NCBI GenBank assembly: GCA_014874455.1
Contig: JADBJL010000092.1
Location: forward strand, 1-32,056
Source of the DNA: Thermomicrobiaceae bacterium
GTDB taxonomy: Bacteria; Chloroflexota; Chloroflexia; Thermomicrobiales; Thermomicrobiaceae
Direction of reading: 5' to 3'
DNA: 32,056 nt
The translations under genes were made by a program, and so were the position numbers. Under the pieces are notes generated by a model. It had not been told where the DNA came from and made no database searches. It saw only the letters and a list, made by a program, of their open reading frames with translations. Position 1 is the first letter of the stretch, and each line of letters starts with the position of its first letter. Below, piece after piece: positions 22,710 through 32,056 of the stretch.

Positions 22710-23408
22710 TCAATCGTTCGGGTAGTCGGGTTCGACTTCGCCCGGGAGCGCGCGCGGGTCGCCGGTGATCACGAAGGCGATCCGCTCGCAGATATTGGTG
22801 ACCCGGTCGGCGATCCGCTCCAGGTTATGGGCTGTCCAGAGAAGCAGCGTGGCTCGCTCGATCGTCGATGGGTCGCTGATCATGTAGGTCAGGAGCTCTC
22901 GGTAGACCTGGTCGTAGAGCGCGTCCACCTCGTCGTCGCGCCGCCAGATCGCGCGGCAAGCCTCCAGGTCGCGGTCGATGAAGGCGTCGAGACTGCCCCG
23001 CAACATCTCGGTCGAAACCTCGGCCATCCGCGGGATATCGATCAGCGGCTTGAGTGGCGGCCGATCGGCGAGCCGCTGCGCGATCTTGGCGATGCCCTCG
23101 GCGTAGTCGCCGATCCGCTCGAGCTCGCTGATGATGAAGAGTGTTGCCGCGATGATCCGGAGGTCGGTGGCCAGCGGCTGCTGGGTGGCGATGAGGAGGA
23201 GCGCCTTCTCCTCCAGCGCATAGGTGCGCTCGTCGATCTCCTGGTCGCCCTCGATCACCTGCCTTGCCAGCTCGACGTCCCGGTTCTTGAGCGCCTGAAC
23301 CGCTCGTTGAACCGCCTTCTCGACCATGCTGCCGAGGTTGAGCACCTCCTCGCGCAGCGACTGCAGCTCGCGCTCGAACTCAGCTCGCGTGCGAATTGCC
23401 GTCCCCAT
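22710..23408 (-). CDS. phoU: Phosphate transport regulator PhoU
   Basis: A 232-residue cytosolic helical protein that links the state of the Pst transporter to the sensor kinase and shuts off the Pho response when phosphate is plentiful. It contains two three-helix PhoU repeats, each with its metal-binding signature: SELERIGDYAEGIAKIA in the first half and HNLERIADRVTNICERIAF in the second. The length is standard. The start is ATG at 23408; a GTG codon one position earlier (23411) is an alternative, with AAGGCAGGTGG upstream. It is the last gene of the leftward pst cluster, separated from pstB by 229 bp that contain a likely promoter of its own. Confidence 0.96.
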   Translation of the reverse strand: MGTAIRTRAEFERELQSLREEVLNLGSMVEKAVQRAVQALKNRDVELARQVIEGDQEIDERTYALEEKALLLIATQQPLATDLRIIAATLFIISELERIGDYAEGIAKIAQRLADRPPLKPLIDIPRMAEVSTEMLRGSLDAFIDRDLEACRAIWRRDDEVDALYDQVYRELLTYMISDPSTIERATLLLWTAHNLERIADRVTNICERIAFVITGDPRALPGEVEPDYPND

Positions 23409-23578
23409 CACCCACCTGCCTTGTCTAGCGTCGTCCTCATGCTAGCTGTATCGGCCCTCTGCCCTGCTGCATTCACCGGTACTCGCGAAGGTGCGCGACA
23501 ACGACAGAGAACCTTCCGGTTCGCCTCGCGTCGCTCCGCGAGTTCGCCACATCCGTCTGAGGCCGCACGGTTCGCCCT

Positions 23579-23637: not shown

Positions 23638-24486
23638 TCAACCGATCTTGCCGGTGATGTACTCCTCGGTCTCCCGCCGCTTGGGATTGGTAAAGATCTG
23701 CTCCGCCGTATCGAACTCGATCAGGCGGCCGGTTCGTTCTTCGCCGGCCAGGAAGAATGCGACGTAGTCGGCGATCCGGGCGGCCTGCTGCATGTTGTGG
23801 GTGACGATGACGATGGTGTAGCGCTGCTTCAGCTCGGCGATTAACTCTTCGATGCGGTAGGTCGCGATAGGGTCGAGCGCGCTGGTCGGCTCGTCCATGA
23901 GCAGCACCTCTGGCTCGATGGCCACCGCCCGCGCGATGCACAGGCGCTGCTGCTGGCCGCCGGAGAGCGAAGAGCCTGGAGCGCCGAGCTTGTCTTTGAC
24001 TTCGTCCCACAGCGCCGCGGCCCGCAGGCTGCGCTCCACGATCTCGTCCGCCTGGGGTTTCGGGATGCGCGAGCGGTGCAGCCGGATTCCGGCGAGCACG
24101 TTGTCGTAGACGGAGAGGTGCGGGAACGGGTTCGGCTTCTGGAAGACCATCCCGATCAACTGGCGTACCCGAGCTGGGTCGATGGCTGGATCGTAGATAT
24201 CCACACCATCGAGCAGGACGCGGCCACTCACGCGGGCGCCGGGCGTCAGCTCGTGCAGGCGGTTGAGGCAGCGGATGAAGGTGGACTTGCCGCAGCCTGA
24301 CGGCCCGATGACCGCGGTGACCGCCGCGGGATGGATCGGGAACGTGATATCTGCCAGTGCTTGGAACTGCCCGTAGAACGCGCTGAGACGCTCCACGGTC
24401 ATGCTCGCGGCCACGGTCTCGCGCTGAGCCAGCGCTGGCTCAGGTTGCCGCTGGCGCACGGTGACGGAGACGAGGGGCTCACTCAT
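23638..24486 (-). CDS. pstB: Phosphate ABC transporter ATPase PstB (second copy)
   Basis: A 282-residue ATPase powering phosphate import through PstCA. Walker A is GPSGCGKST, with the PstB-specific continuation [19 protein letters not shown]. The Q-loop is in [10 protein letters not shown], the ABC signature is [14 protein letters not shown], Walker B is [12 protein letters not shown], and the switch His lies in [16 protein letters not shown]. An N-terminal extension of about 28 residues precedes the first strand and is not found in the other copy. The ATG has an AGGAG site. The two pstB genes are 113 bp apart and diverge clearly, so they are not a recent duplication. Confidence 0.96.
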
Positions 24487-24599: not shown

Positions 24600-25409
24600 C
24601 TAACCGATCCGCCCGGTAATGTAGTCCTCGGTCCGCCGGTCACGCGGGCGGATGAAGATCTCCCGCGTCGGCGCGTACTCGATAAGCTCACCGATCCGAT
24701 CCTCACCGGCTAGCATGAACGCTGTGTAGTCCGAGACTCGGGAGGCCTGCTGCATATTGTGCGTCACGATGACGATGGTATACGACTTCGCCAGCTCGCG
24801 CATCAGGTCTTCGATCCGCATGGTCGCCACCGGATCGAGCGCCGAGCATGGCTCGTCCATGAGCAGGATCTCCGGCTTGACCGCCAGCGCCCGCGCGATG
24901 CAGAGGCGCTGCTGCTGGCCGCCGGAGAGAGCGAGCGCGTTGGCGTGCAGCTTGTCCTTGACCTCGTCCCAGAGCGCGGCCGCGCGCAACGCCTGCTCCA
25001 CCTGCTCGGCCACGTTGCCCCGGTAGCCATTGACCCGCAGCCCGAAGGCGACGTTATCGAAGATCGACTTGGGAAACGGGTTCGGTCGCTGGAAGATCAT
25101 CCCGATGTGTCGGCGTACCCAGACCGGGTCGGTCGTCGGCGCGTAGAGGTCGATCCCGTTCCGCCAGACATGACCCGCCACCCGGGCACCGGGTGTCGTG
25201 TCGTGCAGCCGGTTCAGCGCACGCAGCAGCGTGCTCTTGCCGCACCCGGAGGGGCCGATGATGGCGGTGATGCTCCGCTCCGGAATGACCATCGAGATGT
25301 CGCGGACGGCTTGGTGGGCGCCGTACCAGACCGAGAGGTTCTCGAGGCGCAACGCGACGGAACCTGGGGGAACGACGATGTGGCGGCGCTCGGTCGTCGG
25401 CGCGGTCAT
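24600..25409 (-). CDS. pstB: Phosphate ABC transporter ATPase PstB (first copy)
   Basis: A 269-residue ATPase with Walker [30 protein letters not shown]-loop [13 protein letters not shown], signature [14 protein letters not shown], Walker [13 protein letters not shown] and switch region [13 protein letters not shown]. Cys replaces the usual Thr after DEP, a variant that also occurs in other PstB proteins. GAGAGGAAGG precedes the ATG. It lies 12 bp after pstA, so it is the ATPase most tightly tied to the permease pair. The second pstB copy follows. Both copies keep every catalytic motif, so either could power PstCA. Confidence 0.96.
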
Positions 25410-25421
25410 GCCCTTCCTCTC

Positions 25422-26327
25422 TCAGTCCCGGATCTGGCGCTGCAAGCGCGCGCGCAGCACGATCGCCAGCGCGTTGAAGCTCAGCAGCACCGCCAGCAAG
25501 ATGATGATGCCACCAGCCGCGAGCTGGTGGAACGCCGGCTGGGGCCGCGACACCCAGTTGTAGATCTGGATCGGCAGTACGGTGAAGGGATCGAGCAGGC
25601 TCTTCGGCGTGAAGGCGATGTAGGTGAGCGCGCCGATCGTGATCAGCGGGGCGGTCTCGCCGATCGCCCGCGAGAGCGCCAGGATAGTTCCGGTCAGGAT
25701 ACCGGGCATGGCTACCGGCAAGACGAACATCCGCACCGTCTGCCAGCGCGACGCGCCGAGCGCATAGCCGGCCTCGCGGATCGAGGGCGGCACGGCCCGC
25801 AGCGCCTCCCGGCTGGCGATGATGATGATCGGCAGGATCAGCAGGCTCAGCGTCAGGGCTCCGGCGATCACGCTCGGCCCGAGCGTCAACGCGCGCACGA
25901 AGATCCCGAGGCCGAGCAGCCCGTAGACGATCGACGGCACCGCCGCCAGGTTCGAGATGTTCAGCTCGATGAAGCTGGTCAGTCGGTTCTTGGGAGCGAA
26001 CTCTTCCAGGTAGACCGCGGCGGACACCCCCAGCGGGAACGCGATGACCGCGACCAGCACCATGACATAGACCGTGCCGATCAGCGCCGAGCGGATGCCG
26101 GCTTCGCTCGGCCGCCGCGAGGGGAAGTTCCGGATGAAGTCCCAGGAGAGCACCGACCAGCCGTCGCGCACCACGTCGACGATCAGCGTGCCGAGAGTCA
26201 GTAGCCCGATCGCCATCGCCACGACCGTCAACACGCCGAAGACGGCGCCGACCTTCCGGCGAAGGGAGAGCCGGGGCTGGAATTCGGTGTCAGTCCCCAC
26301 GGTCGGTCTGAGCTGCGTACCCGTCAC
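25422..26327 (-). CDS. pstA: Phosphate ABC transporter permease PstA
   Basis: A 301-residue inner-membrane permease with about six transmembrane helices, beginning with [22 protein letters not shown]. The cytoplasmic coupling loop is [44 protein letters not shown], the EAA-type motif of PstA. It forms the channel with PstC and is powered by PstB. The start is a GTG overlapping the pstC stop (GTGA), which implies translational coupling. The length is normal. Confidence 0.96.
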
Positions 26328-27331
26328 TGGTAGATCTCCCGGAAACGCCGCAGCAAGCGGAAGCTCAGCAGGTTCAGCACCATCGTGATCAGGAAGAGCG
26401 TCGTGCCGACGGCGAAGATCGTCTGGTACTCGAGCGTGCCGTGCGGCGTGTCACCCAGGCTGATCTGGACAATGTAGGCGGTCATCGCCTGCATCTGCTC
26501 CAGCGGGTTGAACGAGAGGCGCGGGGTGTTGCCCATCGCGATCACGACGATCATCGTCTCGCCCACTGCCCGCGAGACCGCCAGGATGAACGAGGCGACG
26601 ATGCCGGAGAGCGAGGCCGGCACGACCACTCGCCACACGACCTCGAGCTTGGTCGCGCCCAGCGCGTAGGCGGCTTCCCGTAGCGACTGCGGCACAGCCA
26701 GCATCGCGTCCTGCGAGAGCGAAGCCACCAGCGGCAGGATCATGATCCCCATCACCAGGCCGGCCGAGAGCACGTTGAAGACTTGCAGGTTGGGGATGAA
26801 GCGCTGGAGGAGCGGCGTCACGAAGAGCAGCGCGAAGTAGCCGTAGACCACGGTCGGCACGCCGGCCAGGATCTCGAGGATCGGCTTGATCACGCGTGCC
26901 AGGCGAAGCGGCAGGTACTCGGCCAGGCCGATGGCCGCCAGTAGCCCGAGGGGCAGCGAGACGAGCATCGCGATCGACGAGACCAGGAGCGTGGCAACAG
27001 CGAGCGGCGCGATCCCGAAGTGCTTCTCGGTGAACAGCGGTGTCCACTGGGTGTCGGTCAAGAAGTCGACGATCGAGACCCGTTGGAAGAAGTGGAACGT
27101 CTCGATGCCCAGGGTGTAGATGATCCCCGCGGTGGTCAGGACAGAGATCGCGGCCGCCAGGAAAAGGCCACCGGTAATGACGCTCTCGCGGATGCGCCGA
27201 CGGCGATCCTGTGCCAGCCCCCCTTGGAGCGTGCGCCGGATGCGCTCTTGCCGCTCGGCTACCACTGCCAAGCGGGCGGCTTCGGGTGTGTACGCTACGT
27301 CCGGAACGCCGTCCATCGCCAACGCCGGCAC
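26324..27331 (-). CDS. pstC: Phosphate ABC transporter permease PstC
   Basis: A permease of up to 335 residues with a long cytoplasmic N-terminus (about 50 residues) before the first membrane helix ([25 protein letters not shown]) and about six helices in all. The EAA-type coupling loop is [43 protein letters not shown]. It pairs with PstA to carry phosphate. The start is uncertain. The frame opens at a GTG at 27331 that lies almost on top of an AGGAGGG site; a TTG at 27322 and an ATG at 27316 are further choices and differ only by a few residues. PstS lies 74 bp upstream. Confidence 0.94.
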
Positions 27332-27405: not shown

Positions 27406-28590
27406 CTACTGCTCGCGGCGCAGGACATCCTCGATCGAAACGCCGACTTCCACTCCCTGGAACACCGAGCCCGTCTTGCGCTTCTCGAACCGCTCCGCGG
27501 CAAGCTGGTACGCCTCGTCCGGCAGCGGGATGTAGCCCACCTCCTCGGACAGTGTCGCCGCGTTCTGGAGGTAGAACCGCACGAACGCGTCGACCTCCGG
27601 CCGCTCGACCGCCGTCATCGAGACATAGATGAAGATCGGCCGGGAGAGCGGCACGTACTGGCCGTTCTTCACCGTCTCCAGGCTGGGCATGACCGGCTCT
27701 CCGGTCTTCGGGTTGATGATGGGCACAATCTTGATCCGGCCCTCGTTCTGGACCGCGTAGGCGAGGCCGAAGTAGCCGAGCGCGTTCACGTCGCCAGCGA
27801 CGCCCTGAACCAGGACGTTGTCGTCCTCAGACGCGGTATAGTCCCCGCGGCTGGCCCCGCTCTTGCCCACGATCGCCTCGGTGAAGTAGTCGAAGGTGCC
27901 CGAATCCGTCCCGGGGCCGTAGAGGTTCAACGGGGCGTCGGGCCACTCCGGCCGGATCTGGTTCCAGCGGGTGATGGTTCCCTGTGCCTCGGGCGCCCAC
28001 ATCGTCTTCAGCTCCTCGACGGTAAGCTGGTCGACCCAGTCGTTCTGCGGGTTGACGACGACCGAGAGCCCGTCGAAGGCGACCGGCAACTCGATGAATT
28101 CGATACCGTTTTGCTGGCAGGTCTGGAGTTCCGAATCCTTGATCGGCCGCGAGGCGTCGCTGATATCAGTCTCCTTGGCGCAGAACTTCTTGAAGCCACC
28201 GCCGGTTCCCGAGATCCCGACCGTGACCTTCACCTCCGGGTACTGCTTCTGGAACTCCTCAGCCACGGCCTCGCTGATCGGGAAGACCGTGCTCGATCCG
28301 TCGATCGCGATCAGGCCGGAGAGCTTCGCGGCCGCGGCAGTCGGCGTAGCTGCTGGGGCGGTCGGCTTCGCGGCTGCAGTGGTCGGCGTAGCTGCCGGAG
28401 CGGTCGGGCTGGGCGCGGCGCCACCCGCTGCCGGCGTGGGTGTTGCCTCCGCCTGCCGGCAGGCTGCCAGCAGCGCCGCGACTATCGGAACCGAGAGCCC
28501 GGTGACCGCTGCGCGCCGGAGCAATGCCCGGCGGCTGAGCTGCTCGGTCGTCAACTGGCGAAAGGCTTGAGAGTTACGCCACGTCTCCAC
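27406..28590 (-). CDS. pstS: Phosphate-binding lipoprotein PstS
   Basis: A 394-residue extracellular phosphate receptor anchored by lipid. The signal region has twin arginines (R20-R21 in LSRRALLRR), a hydrophobic stretch and a lipobox LAAC with the lipidated C44, so Tat export is possible. An Ala/Thr/Pro linker (about 47-92) with a repeated [10 protein letters not shown] unit spaces it from the membrane. Phosphate-contact blocks are [23 protein letters not shown] and [12 protein letters not shown]. The start is GTG with GGAGGAGG seven bases upstream. It is 20 bp after phoB, so regulator and receptor are in one transcript under the PHO box. Confidence 0.95.
28328..28407. repeat. Tandem repeat in the pstS linker
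   Basis: Two imperfect copies of about 38-39 bp, at 28328-28365 and 28369-28407, share TCGGCGTAGCTGC and GCGGTCGG. They encode the repeated [10 protein letters not shown] unit of the lipoprotein linker. Copy number may vary between strains. Confidence 0.75.
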
Positions 28591-28610: not shown

Positions 28611-29366
28611 TCAGGCATCAACCACTTCACTCACGTCCGCTACAAAGCGGTAGCCCACACCGTGCACGGTCTGGATCAGGTGCGATCCATCGGGCTCTCC
28701 TTCCAGCGCAGCGCGAATCCGCCGGATATGCACATCGATATTTCGTGGATCGACGATGACTTCGTTGCCCCACACCAGGTCGAGCAGCTCAGCGCGGCTG
28801 CAGGCCTGGCCAGCTCGCTTGACCAGCGCTGCCAGCAACGCGAACTCTTTCGGTGGAAGGTGGATCTCGCGGTCGTGATAGAGCACCCGGTGCTCGTCGA
28901 GGAAGACTGCCAACCGGCCAGCGGTCAAGACTCGCGGCTCGTCGCTCGGCGCCGCGGCCCGCCGCAGCAGTGCCTCCACCCGGGCCATCAACTCGCGGAC
29001 CCGGAACGGCTTGGTCAGGTAGTCGTCGGCCCCGAGCGCGAACCCAGCGACGACGTCCTCTTCGCTGTCGCGGGCAGTCAGGATCAGGATCGGCACGGAT
29101 GACCACTTGCGGATCAGGCGGCAGACGTCCCGGCCATCGATGCCGGGCAGCATCAGGTCGAGGATCACCAGGTCGGGCCGCACCGAGCGGACCAGCATCA
29201 GCGCCTGTTTGCCGTCGGCGGCAATCCAGGCGCTGTAGCCGTGTCGCTCGAGGTTGTAGCGCAGCAACTCTGCCAGCGTCCCGTCGTCCTCCACGATCAG
29301 CACGCGGTGCTGATCCCGACGAGCACCGCTCGAGCTGGGAACCGCTCGCTCACGCTGTCCGACCAT
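28611..29366 (-). CDS. phoB: OmpR/PhoB-family response regulator
   Basis: A 251-residue transcription factor. The receiver domain has the acidic pocket E26-D27-D28, phosphoacceptor D70 (VILDLMLPG) and K119 (DDYLTKPF). The winged-helix DNA-binding domain covers about 145-245, with [31 protein letters not shown] and [12 protein letters not shown]-type blocks ending in [10 protein letters not shown]. About 20 extra residues precede the receiver. The ATG has AGGA six bases upstream. It heads the pst transcript, and the 11-bp PHO repeats lie 66-131 bp upstream of its start codon, so it probably activates its own operon, as PhoB and PhoP do elsewhere. Confidence 0.94.
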
Positions 29367-29420: not shown

Positions 29421-29426
29421 ACTGTA
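29421..29426 (-). promoter_or_regulatory. -10 element of the phoB-pst promoter
   Basis: TACAGT on the minus strand, just downstream of the last PHO repeat. No -35 hexamer stands 17 bp upstream; that place is taken by the repeats, as expected of an activator-dependent Pho promoter. Confidence 0.5.
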
Positions 29427-29431
29427 CCGTC

Positions 29432-29497
29432 AGGGTGTTAACAGCATGCGAGCGGGGAATTAACGCGCGATTAACGCAGGGTGAACGCGAGCGTGAC
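29432..29497 (-). promoter_or_regulatory. PHO box: six 11-bp direct repeats
   Basis: Read on the minus strand, six units stand in strict 11-bp register: GTCACGCTCGC, GTTCACCCTGC, GTTAATCGCGC, GTTAATTCCCC, GCTCGCATGCT, GTTAACACCCT. Four of them begin with GTTMAY. This matches the 11-bp direct-repeat operators of PhoP in Streptomyces (GTTCACC units) and also the TTAACA repeats of Bacillus. It lies between the atypical receiver gene and phoB and faces phoB, so it is the probable operator of the phoB-pstSCAB operon. Confidence 0.8.
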
Positions 29498-29521: not shown

Positions 29522-29911
29522 TCATCCACCCAGCACCCCAGCGACGGTACGCACCACATCATCGACGCTGAAGGGGCGAACCAGCACGCGGGCAGCCCGG
29601 GCCTCGAGGTCGGGCTGCCCGGCGAGCAGCGGGCTCTTCAGCACGATGACGGGAACCTCCGGCTGGCGACGGAGCAGTTCCAGGAAGCGTGGCCGCTCCT
29701 CAGCAGGCTGCCCGGTCAAGTCAAGAATGAAGAGGGTGGGTGTAATCTCCCACCGCTCCAAATAGGCGATCGCATCGCTCGGACTGGACAGGGCGACGAC
29801 CCATAGCCCCTCCTCCTCGAGCTGCGCCTTCAGGTAGGCGCGGGCCGGCCATTCGCGCTCGACGAGGATCACCGGCCCGATCTGGCTGGTGCTTCGTCGT
29901 TGTCGTGTCAT
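29522..29911 (-). CDS. Atypical stand-alone receiver-domain protein
   Basis: A 129-residue protein with the length and pattern of a single CheY-like receiver domain but no output domain. The phosphoacceptor position is kept as D64 (FILDLTGQ). The acidic pair that binds magnesium is E18-R19, where Asp-Asp is usual, and the conserved Lys of the KPF motif is Arg (VRPFSVDD). Phosphorylation is therefore doubtful; it may act as a phosphorylation-independent partner. A GTG two codons earlier (29917) is another possible start, and no strong Shine-Dalgarno is seen. It sits between the sensor kinase and the PHO box, all leftward, which suggests a role in phosphate signalling, by context only. Confidence 0.78.
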   Translation of the reverse strand: MTRQRRSTSQIGPVILVEREWPARAYLKAQLEEEGLWVVALSSPSDAIAYLERWEITPTLFILDLTGQPAEERPRFLELLRRQPEVPVIVLKSPLLAGQPDLEARAARVLVRPFSVDDVVRTVAGVLGG

Positions 29912-30014
29912 CGGCACGCCCCAGGCTCATCGGCCACGCCGGTGCCTCCCCCCCCCTCGTGGGGGCATCTCAAGTCAACCACGGAGACTCCACGAATAGA
30001 TCATTTCGCCTGCG

Positions 30015-30359: not shown

Positions 30360-31703
30360 CTATTGTGAAGCGGCTGTGAAATCCACTGGCAGGGTGAAGC
30401 CGATAGTCGCTCCCGCGCGTGGCGGGCTCGCCGCCCAGACGGTGCCGCCGTGGAGCTGCACCAGGTGCTTCACGATCGCCAGCCCGAGCCCGCTGCCGCT
30501 GGCGGAGCGCGAGCGGTCGCCCTTGTAGAAGCGCTCGAAGATGCGATCCAGGTCGTCGGACGGGATCCCCGGCCCGGTGTCGCTGACGGCGACGCGGACG
30601 GCGTTCTCGGTTGCCTCCACACTCACCGTGATACGCCCACCCGGCGGGGTGAACTTGATGGCATTGTCGAGGAGATTAGAGAGCACCTGGCCGATCCGCT
30701 CCGGATCGCAGACGATGGTCGGGAGCGCGGAAGGCAGCCTGGTCTCCAGCTCCAGCTCCTTGGCGCGGGCGCGGGGCTCGAAGCGGGCCAGCGTCTGCTG
30801 GATGAGCACCGCCAGGTCGGTCGGCACCCGGTGGAGCGGGAGCTGGCCGGCCTCGGCGCGGGTGAGCTCGAGAAGCTGCGTGACGAGCCGGGTGAGGTGG
30901 TCGACCTCGGTCGCGATCCGGTTGAGGAAGTCGCGGGCCACCGAAGGGTCTTCGAGCGCGCCGTCGAGCAGCGTCTCGACGAGGGCCTGCAGCCCAGCCA
31001 GCGGCGTCCTGAGGTCGTGCGAGACGTTGGCGATGAAGTCGCGCCGGATGGCTTCGGTGCGCCGCAGCTCGGTGATGTCGCGCAGGATCAGCGTGACCAT
31101 CGGGCCGCTCGGGCCGGGTAGCGAGGAGGCCAGCGCCTGCACTGTCCGTCCCGGGCGTCCGAGCTCCACGAAGCGACTCGGCGGGCTGGTTGCCCCCGAC
31201 GCGGCGGCGCGCACCAGCTCGTCCAGTTCGTAGTCGCGCAGCACCTCAGGGTACGGGCGACCGATCGCCCGGCCACGTCCGGTGCTCAGCAGTTCGTGGG
31301 CAGCTCGGTTGAGGAGCCTGACCTTGCTTTGGGCATCGATGATCACGATCCCGTCGCTCAGGTGCTCGAGGATCCGGTGAAGCTGCTCTCGCTCCGCCTC
31401 GGCCAGCCGGCGCTGCTCTCCGGACACCCGGAGCGCGTCGTCGAGCTGCGCGCGCAGCCGCTCCAGCGGGTCGGGAAGCGCAACTGGCTCCCGTAGTGCT
31501 CGCGCCTCGGCGTGGTGCGCGGCGAGCTGGCGCTGGAGCGCCTCGATGCGGGCCGCGAGCTGGCGGCGATATCGCCAGCGCAGTACGAGCGCCGCCACCG
31601 CCATGCCCAGCGCGGCGGCGAGCAGCACAGCCAGAAGGTCTCCGGCCGCTGGCGAGAACTCGGCAAGCAGGATCGGAACGGATACGAGTACCGGAGCGGG
31701 CAC
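30360..31703 (-). CDS. phoR: PAS-containing sensor histidine kinase (PhoR-like)
   Basis: A 447-residue membrane kinase. One transmembrane helix lies at about 21-42, followed by a coiled-coil stretch to about 110, a PAS domain (about 110-215: ILEHLSDGIVIIDAQSKVRLLNRAA), the HisKA domain with H229 in FIANVSHDLRTPL, and the ATPase domain with the N box (NLLDNAIKF), G1 (DTGPGIPSDD), F box (IFERFYKGDRSR) and G2 (GSGLGLAIVKHLV). The single anchor without a large outer domain fits PhoR-type kinases that sense through PstSCAB-PhoU. The start is GTG with GAGGTGA upstream. It follows a second OmpR-type regulator by 122 bp, which may be its true partner. Confidence 0.9.
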   Translation of the reverse strand: MPAPVLVSVPILLAEFSPAAGDLLAVLLAAALGMAVAALVLRWRYRRQLAARIEALQRQLAAHHAEARALREPVALPDPLERLRAQLDDALRVSGEQRRLAEAEREQLHRILEHLSDGIVIIDAQSKVRLLNRAAHELLSTGRGRAIGRPYPEVLRDYELDELVRAAASGATSPPSRFVELGRPGRTVQALASSLPGPSGPMVTLILRDITELRRTEAIRRDFIANVSHDLRTPLAGLQALVETLLDGALEDPSVARDFLNRIATEVDHLTRLVTQLLELTRAEAGQLPLHRVPTDLAVLIQQTLARFEPRARAKELELETRLPSALPTIVCDPERIGQVLSNLLDNAIKFTPPGGRITVSVEATENAVRVAVSDTGPGIPSDDLDRIFERFYKGDRSRSASGSGLGLAIVKHLVQLHGGTVWAASPPRAGATIGFTLPVDFTAASQ

Positions 31704-31825: not shown

Positions 31826-32056
31826 TTACGAGGTCGCCTGCGACGAGAGGCGATACCCGATCCCCCGCACGGTCTCGATGAGTCCAGGATGCCGGGGATC
31901 GTCTTCCAGCTTCTCGCGCAGCCCGTGGATGTGGACGGCCAGCGTTCGGGTATCGCCGTAGCCCTCGTAGCCCCAGACCGCGCGCAAGAGGCTCTCCGAG
32001 GTACAGACGCGGCCCTGGTGGCGAGCCAGGTAGACGAGCAGCTCGTACTCCTTCGG
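31826..32056 (-). CDS. OmpR-family response regulator, 3' end only
   Basis: The last 76 codons of a winged-helix response regulator; the rest lies beyond the window. The visible part reads PKEYELLVYLARHQGRVCTSESLLRAVWGY, then TRTLAVHIHGLREKLEDDP and TVRGIGYRLS, the recognition helix and C-terminal hairpin of the PhoB/OmpR fold. It precedes the sensor kinase in the same direction with a 122-bp gap, a normal order for a two-component pair. The locus thus has two OmpR-type regulators plus one atypical receiver. Which regulator is the phosphate regulator cannot be settled from this piece. Confidence 0.88.
   Translation of the reverse strand, partial: PKEYELLVYLARHQGRVCTSESLLRAVWGYEGYGDTRTLAVHIHGLREKLEDDPRHPGLIETVRGIGYRLSSQATS

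What the first reader, a model, noticed from the sequence alone, without database searches (positions are those of the whole stretch)
29421..29497. Six-unit PHO box replacing the -35 of the phoB-pst promoter
Six 11-bp units in exact register, four starting GTTMAY, end just before a TACAGT -10. The pattern combines actinobacterial (GTTCACC) and Bacillus (TTAACA) versions and can serve as a motif for the regulon.
Basis: partly seen in the sequence, partly recalled or inferred. Interest (0 to 1): 0.5.

Follow-up and report, generated by a model that had tools for sequence, protein, structure and literature searches.

The report
Phosphate-starvation switch before phosphate genes
A run of evenly spaced 11-letter DNA repeats next to a phosphate-uptake operon looks like a genuine docking site for a phosphate-starvation regulator; it is of a well-known kind, but the same design recurs in a whole class of bacteria for which I found no published description.

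Summary
On the minus strand, between a receiver-like gene and a PhoB-like regulator heading pstSCAB-pstB-phoU, four GTTMAY hexamers lie in one 11-bp register, the last starting 16 bp before TACAGT. Three or more in register never arose in 300 simulated windows. "Six units" is too many: relatives keep four plus the -10; the fifth (29476-29486) is weakly kept, the sixth (29487-29497) is not, and unit 29443-29453 keeps register but not consensus.

All 14 ortholog loci found (four genera) keep the block; 0 of 16 other response-regulator promoters have it. Of 60 pstS upstream regions from the wider class, 25 score at least 13 of 15 for the same geometry (none in 20 randomised rounds). A model trained only on pst-operon promoters then found PhoX, 5'-nucleotidase and phosphonate-transport genes. 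The 16-bp distance matches E. coli phoA, and no -35 is present.

It is a PHO box, part of what looks like a class-wide Chloroflexota type, nearest by eye to the cyanobacterial CTTAACCT box. In its own genome the motif marks only this promoter. Which regulator binds is unsettled: one genus keeps the box without the adjacent PhoB.

The parts
29465..29475 (-). core unit -4, GTTAATCGCGC
   Evidence: counterpart in all 14 ortholog promoters (G1, T3, A5, C7 invariant there)
29454..29464 (-). core unit -3, GTTAATTCCCC
   Evidence: GTT and A5 invariant in 14 of 14
29443..29453 (-). core unit -2, GCTCGCATGCT: in register, off consensus; covers the place where a -35 would lie
   Evidence: no -35 match
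29432..29442 (-). core unit -1, GTTAACACCCT; starts 16 bp upstream of the -10
   Evidence: T3, A4, A5 and the 16-bp distance invariant in 14 of 14
29421..29426 (-). -10 element TACAGT
   Evidence: TA-A-T invariant in 14 of 14
29476..29486 (-). outer unit -5, GTTCACCCTGC; accessory, weakly conserved
   Evidence: GCTCACC and GTTCCCC in the two genus mates
29487..29497 (-). claimed sixth unit GTCACGCTCGC; not supported
   Evidence: Not conserved even within the genus
28611..29366 (-). RR1, PhoB-like OmpR-family response regulator, first gene of the operon
   Evidence: Pfam Response_reg + Trans_reg_C; TIGR02154 PhoB 230 bits, under its 296 cut-off; helix [14 protein letters not shown] vs E. coli RTVDVHIRRLRKAL
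27406..28590 (-). pstS
   Evidence: TIGR02136, 322 bits, over cut-off
26324..27331 (-). pstC
   Evidence: TIGR02138 over cut-off
25422..26327 (-). pstA
   Evidence: TIGR00974 over cut-off
24600..25409 (-). pstB, first copy
   Evidence: TIGR00972 over cut-off
23638..24486 (-). pstB, second copy
   Evidence: TIGR00972 over cut-off
22710..23411 (-). phoU
   Evidence: TIGR02135 over cut-off
30360..31703 (-). histidine kinase, PnpS/PhoR-like
   Evidence: PAS, HisKA, HATPase_c; PnpS best hit, 316 bits, under its 400 cut-off
31826..32056 (-). 3' end of RR2, a second response regulator, cut by the contig end
   Evidence: Frame 0 reads PKEYELLVYLARH...RTLAVHIHGLREKL...GIGYRLSSQATS-stop; the contig is 32056 bases

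Best explanation
A PHO box: a tandem array of four 11-bp half-sites (plus one weak outer one) at which a phosphorylated PhoB-family regulator binds head to tail and activates the phoB-pstSCABB-phoU operon when phosphate is low. The last half-site lies 16 bp from the -10 and takes the place of a -35, so activation most likely works as at E. coli phoA, by holding sigma region 4 at a promoter without a -35. Because phoB is the first gene, the circuit is a positive autoregulatory loop that includes the transporter. Shown here: array, register, spacing, missing -35, conservation across the class, phosphate genes behind the same motif elsewhere. Inferred: binding, phosphorylation, activation, the low-phosphate signal. 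RR1 (28611-29366) is the likeliest binder; RR2 beside the kinase is a real alternative.
For: Statistics. Leave-one-genus-out matrix: 14 of 14 ortholog promoters found at the same place, 0 of 16 other response-regulator promoters. Spacing 16 in 14 of 14 (I set those anchors by eye, the matrix then found the same places). Class test: of 60 pstS upstream regions 25 score >=13 of 15 and 11 score >=14 at period 11 and distance 16; other distances at period 11 give 1-6 and 0-2; periods 9, 10, 12 and 13 give at most 1. Markov copies reach 13 in 0 of 20 rounds; the 25 collapse to 18 at 75% identity. Out-of-sample: model R3, trained on pst-operon promoters; of 40 further sites 14 precede phosphate genes (5 pst; 9 others: 3 PhoX, 5'-nucleotidase, two phosphonate-type binding proteins, phosphoesterase, phosphodiesterase, phytase-like). 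E. coli phoA gives 13 of 13 at distance 16 only. RR1 is one clade across the order (100/96), and an RR gene lies between the best-scoring box position and pstS in 22 of 34 order-level regions (box score >=12 in 10 of those 22).
Against: No binding or expression data. RR1 misses the NCBIfam PhoB cut-off, and MtrA scores marginally higher (233 vs 230 bits, both under cut-off). Three genomes of genus g4 keep the box directly before pstS with no RR1, so another regulator can probably read it. In the own genome no second target was found, and the low-stringency scan shows no clear excess over control (9 other sites against 6). R3 itself missed the own genome's box, probably because unit -2 is degenerate. 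35 of 60 class pstS regions stay under 13. Of the 40 extra sites, 9 first genes had no Pfam match and 11 have no clear phosphate link.
Confidence: 0.9

Rival explanations
1. The box is a PHO box, but its main reader is RR2, encoded beside the kinase and cut by the contig end; RR1 is a target gene or a modulator.
For: In g4 the order is RR2-kinase-box-pst with no RR1. Model R1, not trained on g4, put each g4 genome's best hit in the kinase-pstS gap (E 0.09, 0.22, 0.69). RR2's recognition helix is nearly constant, R-T-[LV]-A-V-H-[IV]-H-[GS]-L, while RR1's varies. RR2 adjoins the kinase in g1, g4 and g6.
Against: RR1 keeps the E. coli-like DVHIRR helix in g1 and g6 and follows the box in g1, g3, g5, g6, f3 and f5. 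RR2-type genes lack a box of their own: 15 of the 16 box-less promoters belong to regulators with the RR2-type helix. Unit position 1 is G in units -4 to -2 of all 14 RR1 loci but T or C in g4.
Confidence: 0.25
2. The array is a site for a non-phosphate OmpR-family regulator (MtrA-, WalR- or CtrA-like), since 11-bp direct repeats are common to that family.
For: RR1's best NCBIfam match is MtrA by 3 bits; all known OmpR/PhoB-family sites are direct repeats (PMC4832192, passages).
Against: It precedes pst across the class, and the same motif precedes PhoX, nucleotidase and phosphonate genes.
Confidence: 0.04
3. Chance or low-complexity repeat, or sequence kept only because the relatives are close.
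For: Within genus g1 the stretch is similar anyway, so conservation there alone says little.
Against: Never reached in 300 simulated windows; found with matrices that left the genus out; found in other families.
Confidence: 0.01

Closest known systems
Cyanobacterial SphR Pho box (CTTAACCT, 8 bp + 3 bp linker)
   Same: 11-bp period, three or more tandem units, TTAA core; a reported Anabaena phoA box, GTTAATCT-tca-GTTAACCT, is nearly the window's units (PMC1906773, passages read)
   Different: Different phylum; here four core units at a fixed distance from the -10, and G at unit position 1 in units -4 to -2 of the 14 RR1 loci
Escherichia coli PhoB pho box (phoA, phoB, pstS)
   Same: 11-bp repeats, no -35; at phoA the last core starts 16 bp before the -10; 'located 10 bp upstream of the -10' in PMC1906773
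   Different: Two units at phoA; core TGTCA instead of TTAA/TTCA
Streptomyces PhoP PHO box (GTTCACC, 11-nt direct-repeat units)
   Same: 7+4-nt units; window unit 29476-29486 begins GTTCACC exactly; consensus from PMC4415409, passages read
   Different: GTTCAC is the minority unit here and is not kept in the two genus mates
Bacillus subtilis PhoP box (TTAACA-type repeats)
   Same: Tandem TTAACA-like repeats (consensus recalled; my search for it found no paper); window unit -1 contains TTAACA
   Different: Not compared by a tool here

Membership tests
PHO box (PhoB/PhoP operator) | Two or more direct-repeat units of 11 nt, seven better and four less conserved | tested here: met
   definition from PMC4415409
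PHO box (PhoB/PhoP operator) | Located about 10 bp upstream of a -10 and in place of a -35 | tested here: met
   6-bp core ends 10 bp before TACAGT; no -35 in 14 of 14; E. coli phoA same distance
PHO box (PhoB/PhoP operator) | Precedes phosphate-acquisition genes, and the same motif marks other phosphate genes | tested here: met
   pst-phoU here; 25 of 60 class pstS regions; 14 of 40 further sites in other genomes
PHO box (PhoB/PhoP operator) | Marks a multi-promoter regulon in the same genome (usual, not strictly required) | tested here: inconclusive
   Only this promoter found in the window's genome; weaker boxes could be missed
PHO box (PhoB/PhoP operator) | Bound by the phosphorylated regulator | not testable with these tools
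   Needs footprint or gel shift
PHO box (PhoB/PhoP operator) | Promoter induced by low phosphate | not testable with these tools
   Needs expression data
PhoB (TIGR02154 equivalog) | Score over the curated cut-off | tested here: not met
   230.3 bits against 296.2
PhoB (TIGR02154 equivalog) | PhoB-like DNA recognition helix | tested here: met
   [14 protein letters not shown] against E. coli RTVDVHIRRLRKAL
Cyanobacterial SphR box | At least three tandem CTTAACCT-like 8-mers with 3-bp linkers | tested here: inconclusive
   Period and TTAA core agree by eye; no profile comparison was run

The most novel reading that the evidence does not exclude
A class-wide Chloroflexota PHO operator whose geometry (four 11-bp units, 16 bp to the -10) is held fixed while the regulator that reads it is exchanged: RR1 with diverging recognition helices in most of the order, RR2 or another regulator in genus g4, which has no RR1 but keeps the box. 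In the window's family the regulon appears to have shrunk to this one self-amplifying promoter.
Probability: 0.35. Interest if true: 0.55.

Novelty: new member of a known kind. Interest (0 to 1): 0.4.

Why it matters
It gives a computationally tested cis-motif for phosphate control in a class with few genetic systems, so the Pho regulon there can be read from sequence. It also offers a natural case of one operator kept while its regulator changes. In four paper searches pairing pho box, Pho regulon, PhoB or phosphate-regulon terms with Chloroflexi or Thermomicrobi terms, no listed title described such a box; most subscription papers are not held, and searches listed only the top of 471 and 39 papers.

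Tried and rejected
Six units: rejected, because the outermost is absent in genus mates and the next one is weak.

Exact GTTMAY scans as a regulon finder in the own genome: one extra two-unit site, C51:12443; I looked at its surroundings and saw nothing phosphate-related. The three-unit scan with 3 mismatches gave 14 matches, 5 of them at the box itself, so 9 others against 6 control matches; for C64:46504 and C84:5901 I saw no evident phosphate gene beside them, the other seven were not followed. TTMAY x3 occurs once in the own genome; in family mate G004 it precedes a membrane phosphatase-like gene, which I named from its sequence by recall, not by a family search.

Models R1 and R2 reach the window's family only (18 of 21 genomes at E <= 3.3e-5, most of them in the training set; 0 of 40 other genomes of the order at E <= 0.01); the broader R3 was needed. 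R2 over 80 named loci gave one hit, L035. R3 at its strict filters missed the window's own genome.

Of 82 R3 hits at E <= 0.011 (my count of the list) I followed 40. The other 42 are box sites of pst or RR1 loci known from earlier calls, many used in training, the PhoX site in G021 already seen, and two not looked at (G055:C122, G047:C270). Hits above 0.011 were not followed. The 'first gene' was chosen mechanically as the longest open frame starting within 700 bases. Five of the 40 turned out to be pst genes after all.

Of the 60 pstS regions, chosen by me from the longer list, several genomes gave two, some were cut by contig ends (L190 is 316 bases, L200 is 673), and near-duplicates exist (25 sites make 18 groups at 75%). 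In f2, L168 and L176 were read by eye first; L168 leads to PhoX. L172's displayed strand was not the matched strand, so I make no claim on it.

The tree leaves the order of RR1, RR2 and outside regulators unresolved near the root; E. coli PhoB is a long branch.

Full report
What is there. On the minus strand, in the 155-bp gap between a receiver-like gene (29522-29917) and a PhoB-like regulator (28611-29366), lies an 11-bp array: GTTCACCCTGC GTTAATCGCGC GTTAATTCCCC GCTCGCATGCT GTTAACACCCT, then GACGG and TACAGT. Behind the regulator (RR1) follow pstS, pstC, pstA, two pstB and phoU, each over its curated NCBIfam cut-off. Upstream on the same strand are a PnpS/PhoR-like kinase and, cut by the contig end, the C-terminal part of a second regulator, RR2. 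The window is the entire contig C23 of a 3.37-Mb genome.

Is it more than chance? Three or more GTTMAY in 11-bp register never occurred in 300 simulated windows. In the whole genome, TTMAY three times in register is found only here.

Conservation. A search of the 21 genomes of the family gave 14 loci with RR1: the window itself and 13 orthologs at 54-89% identity. All 14, from genera g1, g3, g5 and g6, have four units in register with the last starting 16 bp before TA-A-T. I set those anchors by eye; a matrix trained without the genus under test then picked the same place in 14 of 14. None of 16 other response-regulator promoters had a convincing match (the best, L033, reached z 2.9 at a negative score). 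No promoter of the 14 has a -35 better than 3 of 6.

The class. From a PstS-family search in 140 genomes I fetched 60 upstream regions. Scored generically (T, T, A in each of four units, TA---T at the -10, maximum 15), 25 of 60 reach 13 and 11 reach 14 at period 11 and distance 16. At period 11, other distances give 1-6 and 0-2; periods 9, 10, 12 and 13 give at most one; the reverse strand gives 3 and 1. Randomised copies reach 13 in none of 20 rounds; the 25 sites make 18 groups at 75% identity. The remaining 35 regions stay under 13.

Other targets. Model R3, trained on 25 pst-operon promoters, was run over the 140 genomes. Of 40 further sites that I followed, 14 precede phosphate genes: four PstS, one PstC, three PhoX, a 5'-nucleotidase, a phosphonate-binding protein, a 2-aminoethylphosphonate-binding protein, a phosphoesterase, a phosphodiesterase and a phytase-like protein. 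Three more match glycerol-3-phosphate permeases below cut-off, three are family-4 glycosyltransferases, nine have no Pfam match, and eleven have no clear link. PhoX is rare (67 of 140 genomes, mostly one each), so three in 40 is far above a random draw. A further PhoX site was seen in G021 with model R2.

Mechanism. Half-sites repeat at about one DNA turn, as known for tandem PhoB/PhoP binding (PMC4832192, passages; PMC4415409, passages). In E. coli K-12 phoA the last TGTCA starts 16 bp before TATAGT, the only distance with a full score; phoB and pstS fit 16 but not uniquely. I align TGTCA with GTTAA at the same place in the unit; this is my choice. So the window's promoter most likely works as a PhoB-dependent promoter without a -35 and, with phoB first in the operon, as a positive loop. 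Binding and induction were not tested.

Which regulator? RR1 forms one clade in families f1, f3 and f5 (support 100/96). An RR gene lies between the best-scoring box position and pstS in 22 of 34 order-level regions; the box score is 12 or more in 10 of those 22, and one of the 22 resembled RR2 more than RR1. But genus g4 has RR2-kinase-box-pst without RR1; one such genome is in two contigs and 99% complete. In G003 the box also directly precedes pstS, though that genome is 70% complete. RR1's recognition helix varies (DVHIRR, DVHIHR, DVHVRL in f1) while RR2's hardly does. Hence RR1 is favoured and RR2 stays open.

Known or new? The kind is known. Of the published consensuses, the cyanobacterial CTTAACCT box is nearest by eye (PMC1906773, passages). 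The paper searches listed nothing on a Chloroflexota box; for those I saw listings only.

Noticed in passing
window 29522-29917 (-): Short receiver-like protein just upstream of the box, below Pfam thresholds and apparently lacking the acidic pair and the conserved lysine (read by eye); kept in genera g1 and g5 before RR1.
   Followed up: partly
L168 (G021:C288), site about 1501-1555: Four clean units and a TATCCT -10 at 16 bp, upstream of a PhoX alkaline phosphatase in another family of the order.
   Followed up: yes
L176 (G021:C186), L275, L290, L293: The same box precedes family-4 glycosyltransferases in several genomes; may be phosphate-saving membrane-lipid remodelling.
   Followed up: partly
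L160 (G004:C321:5473-5499, -): Three TTMAY units before a membrane phosphatase-like gene (name by recall); the -10-like TACTGT is 14, not 16, bp from the last unit.
   Followed up: partly
L153 2561-2615 (-), G003:C43: Box directly before pstS with one base missing between two units and no RR1 between.
   Followed up: partly
window 24600-25409 and 23638-24486: Two adjacent pstB genes in one operon, also in g4 and g5 relatives.
   Followed up: no
window 31826-32056: Second response regulator of the cluster is cut by the contig end, so the window shows only its DNA-binding tail.
   Followed up: yes
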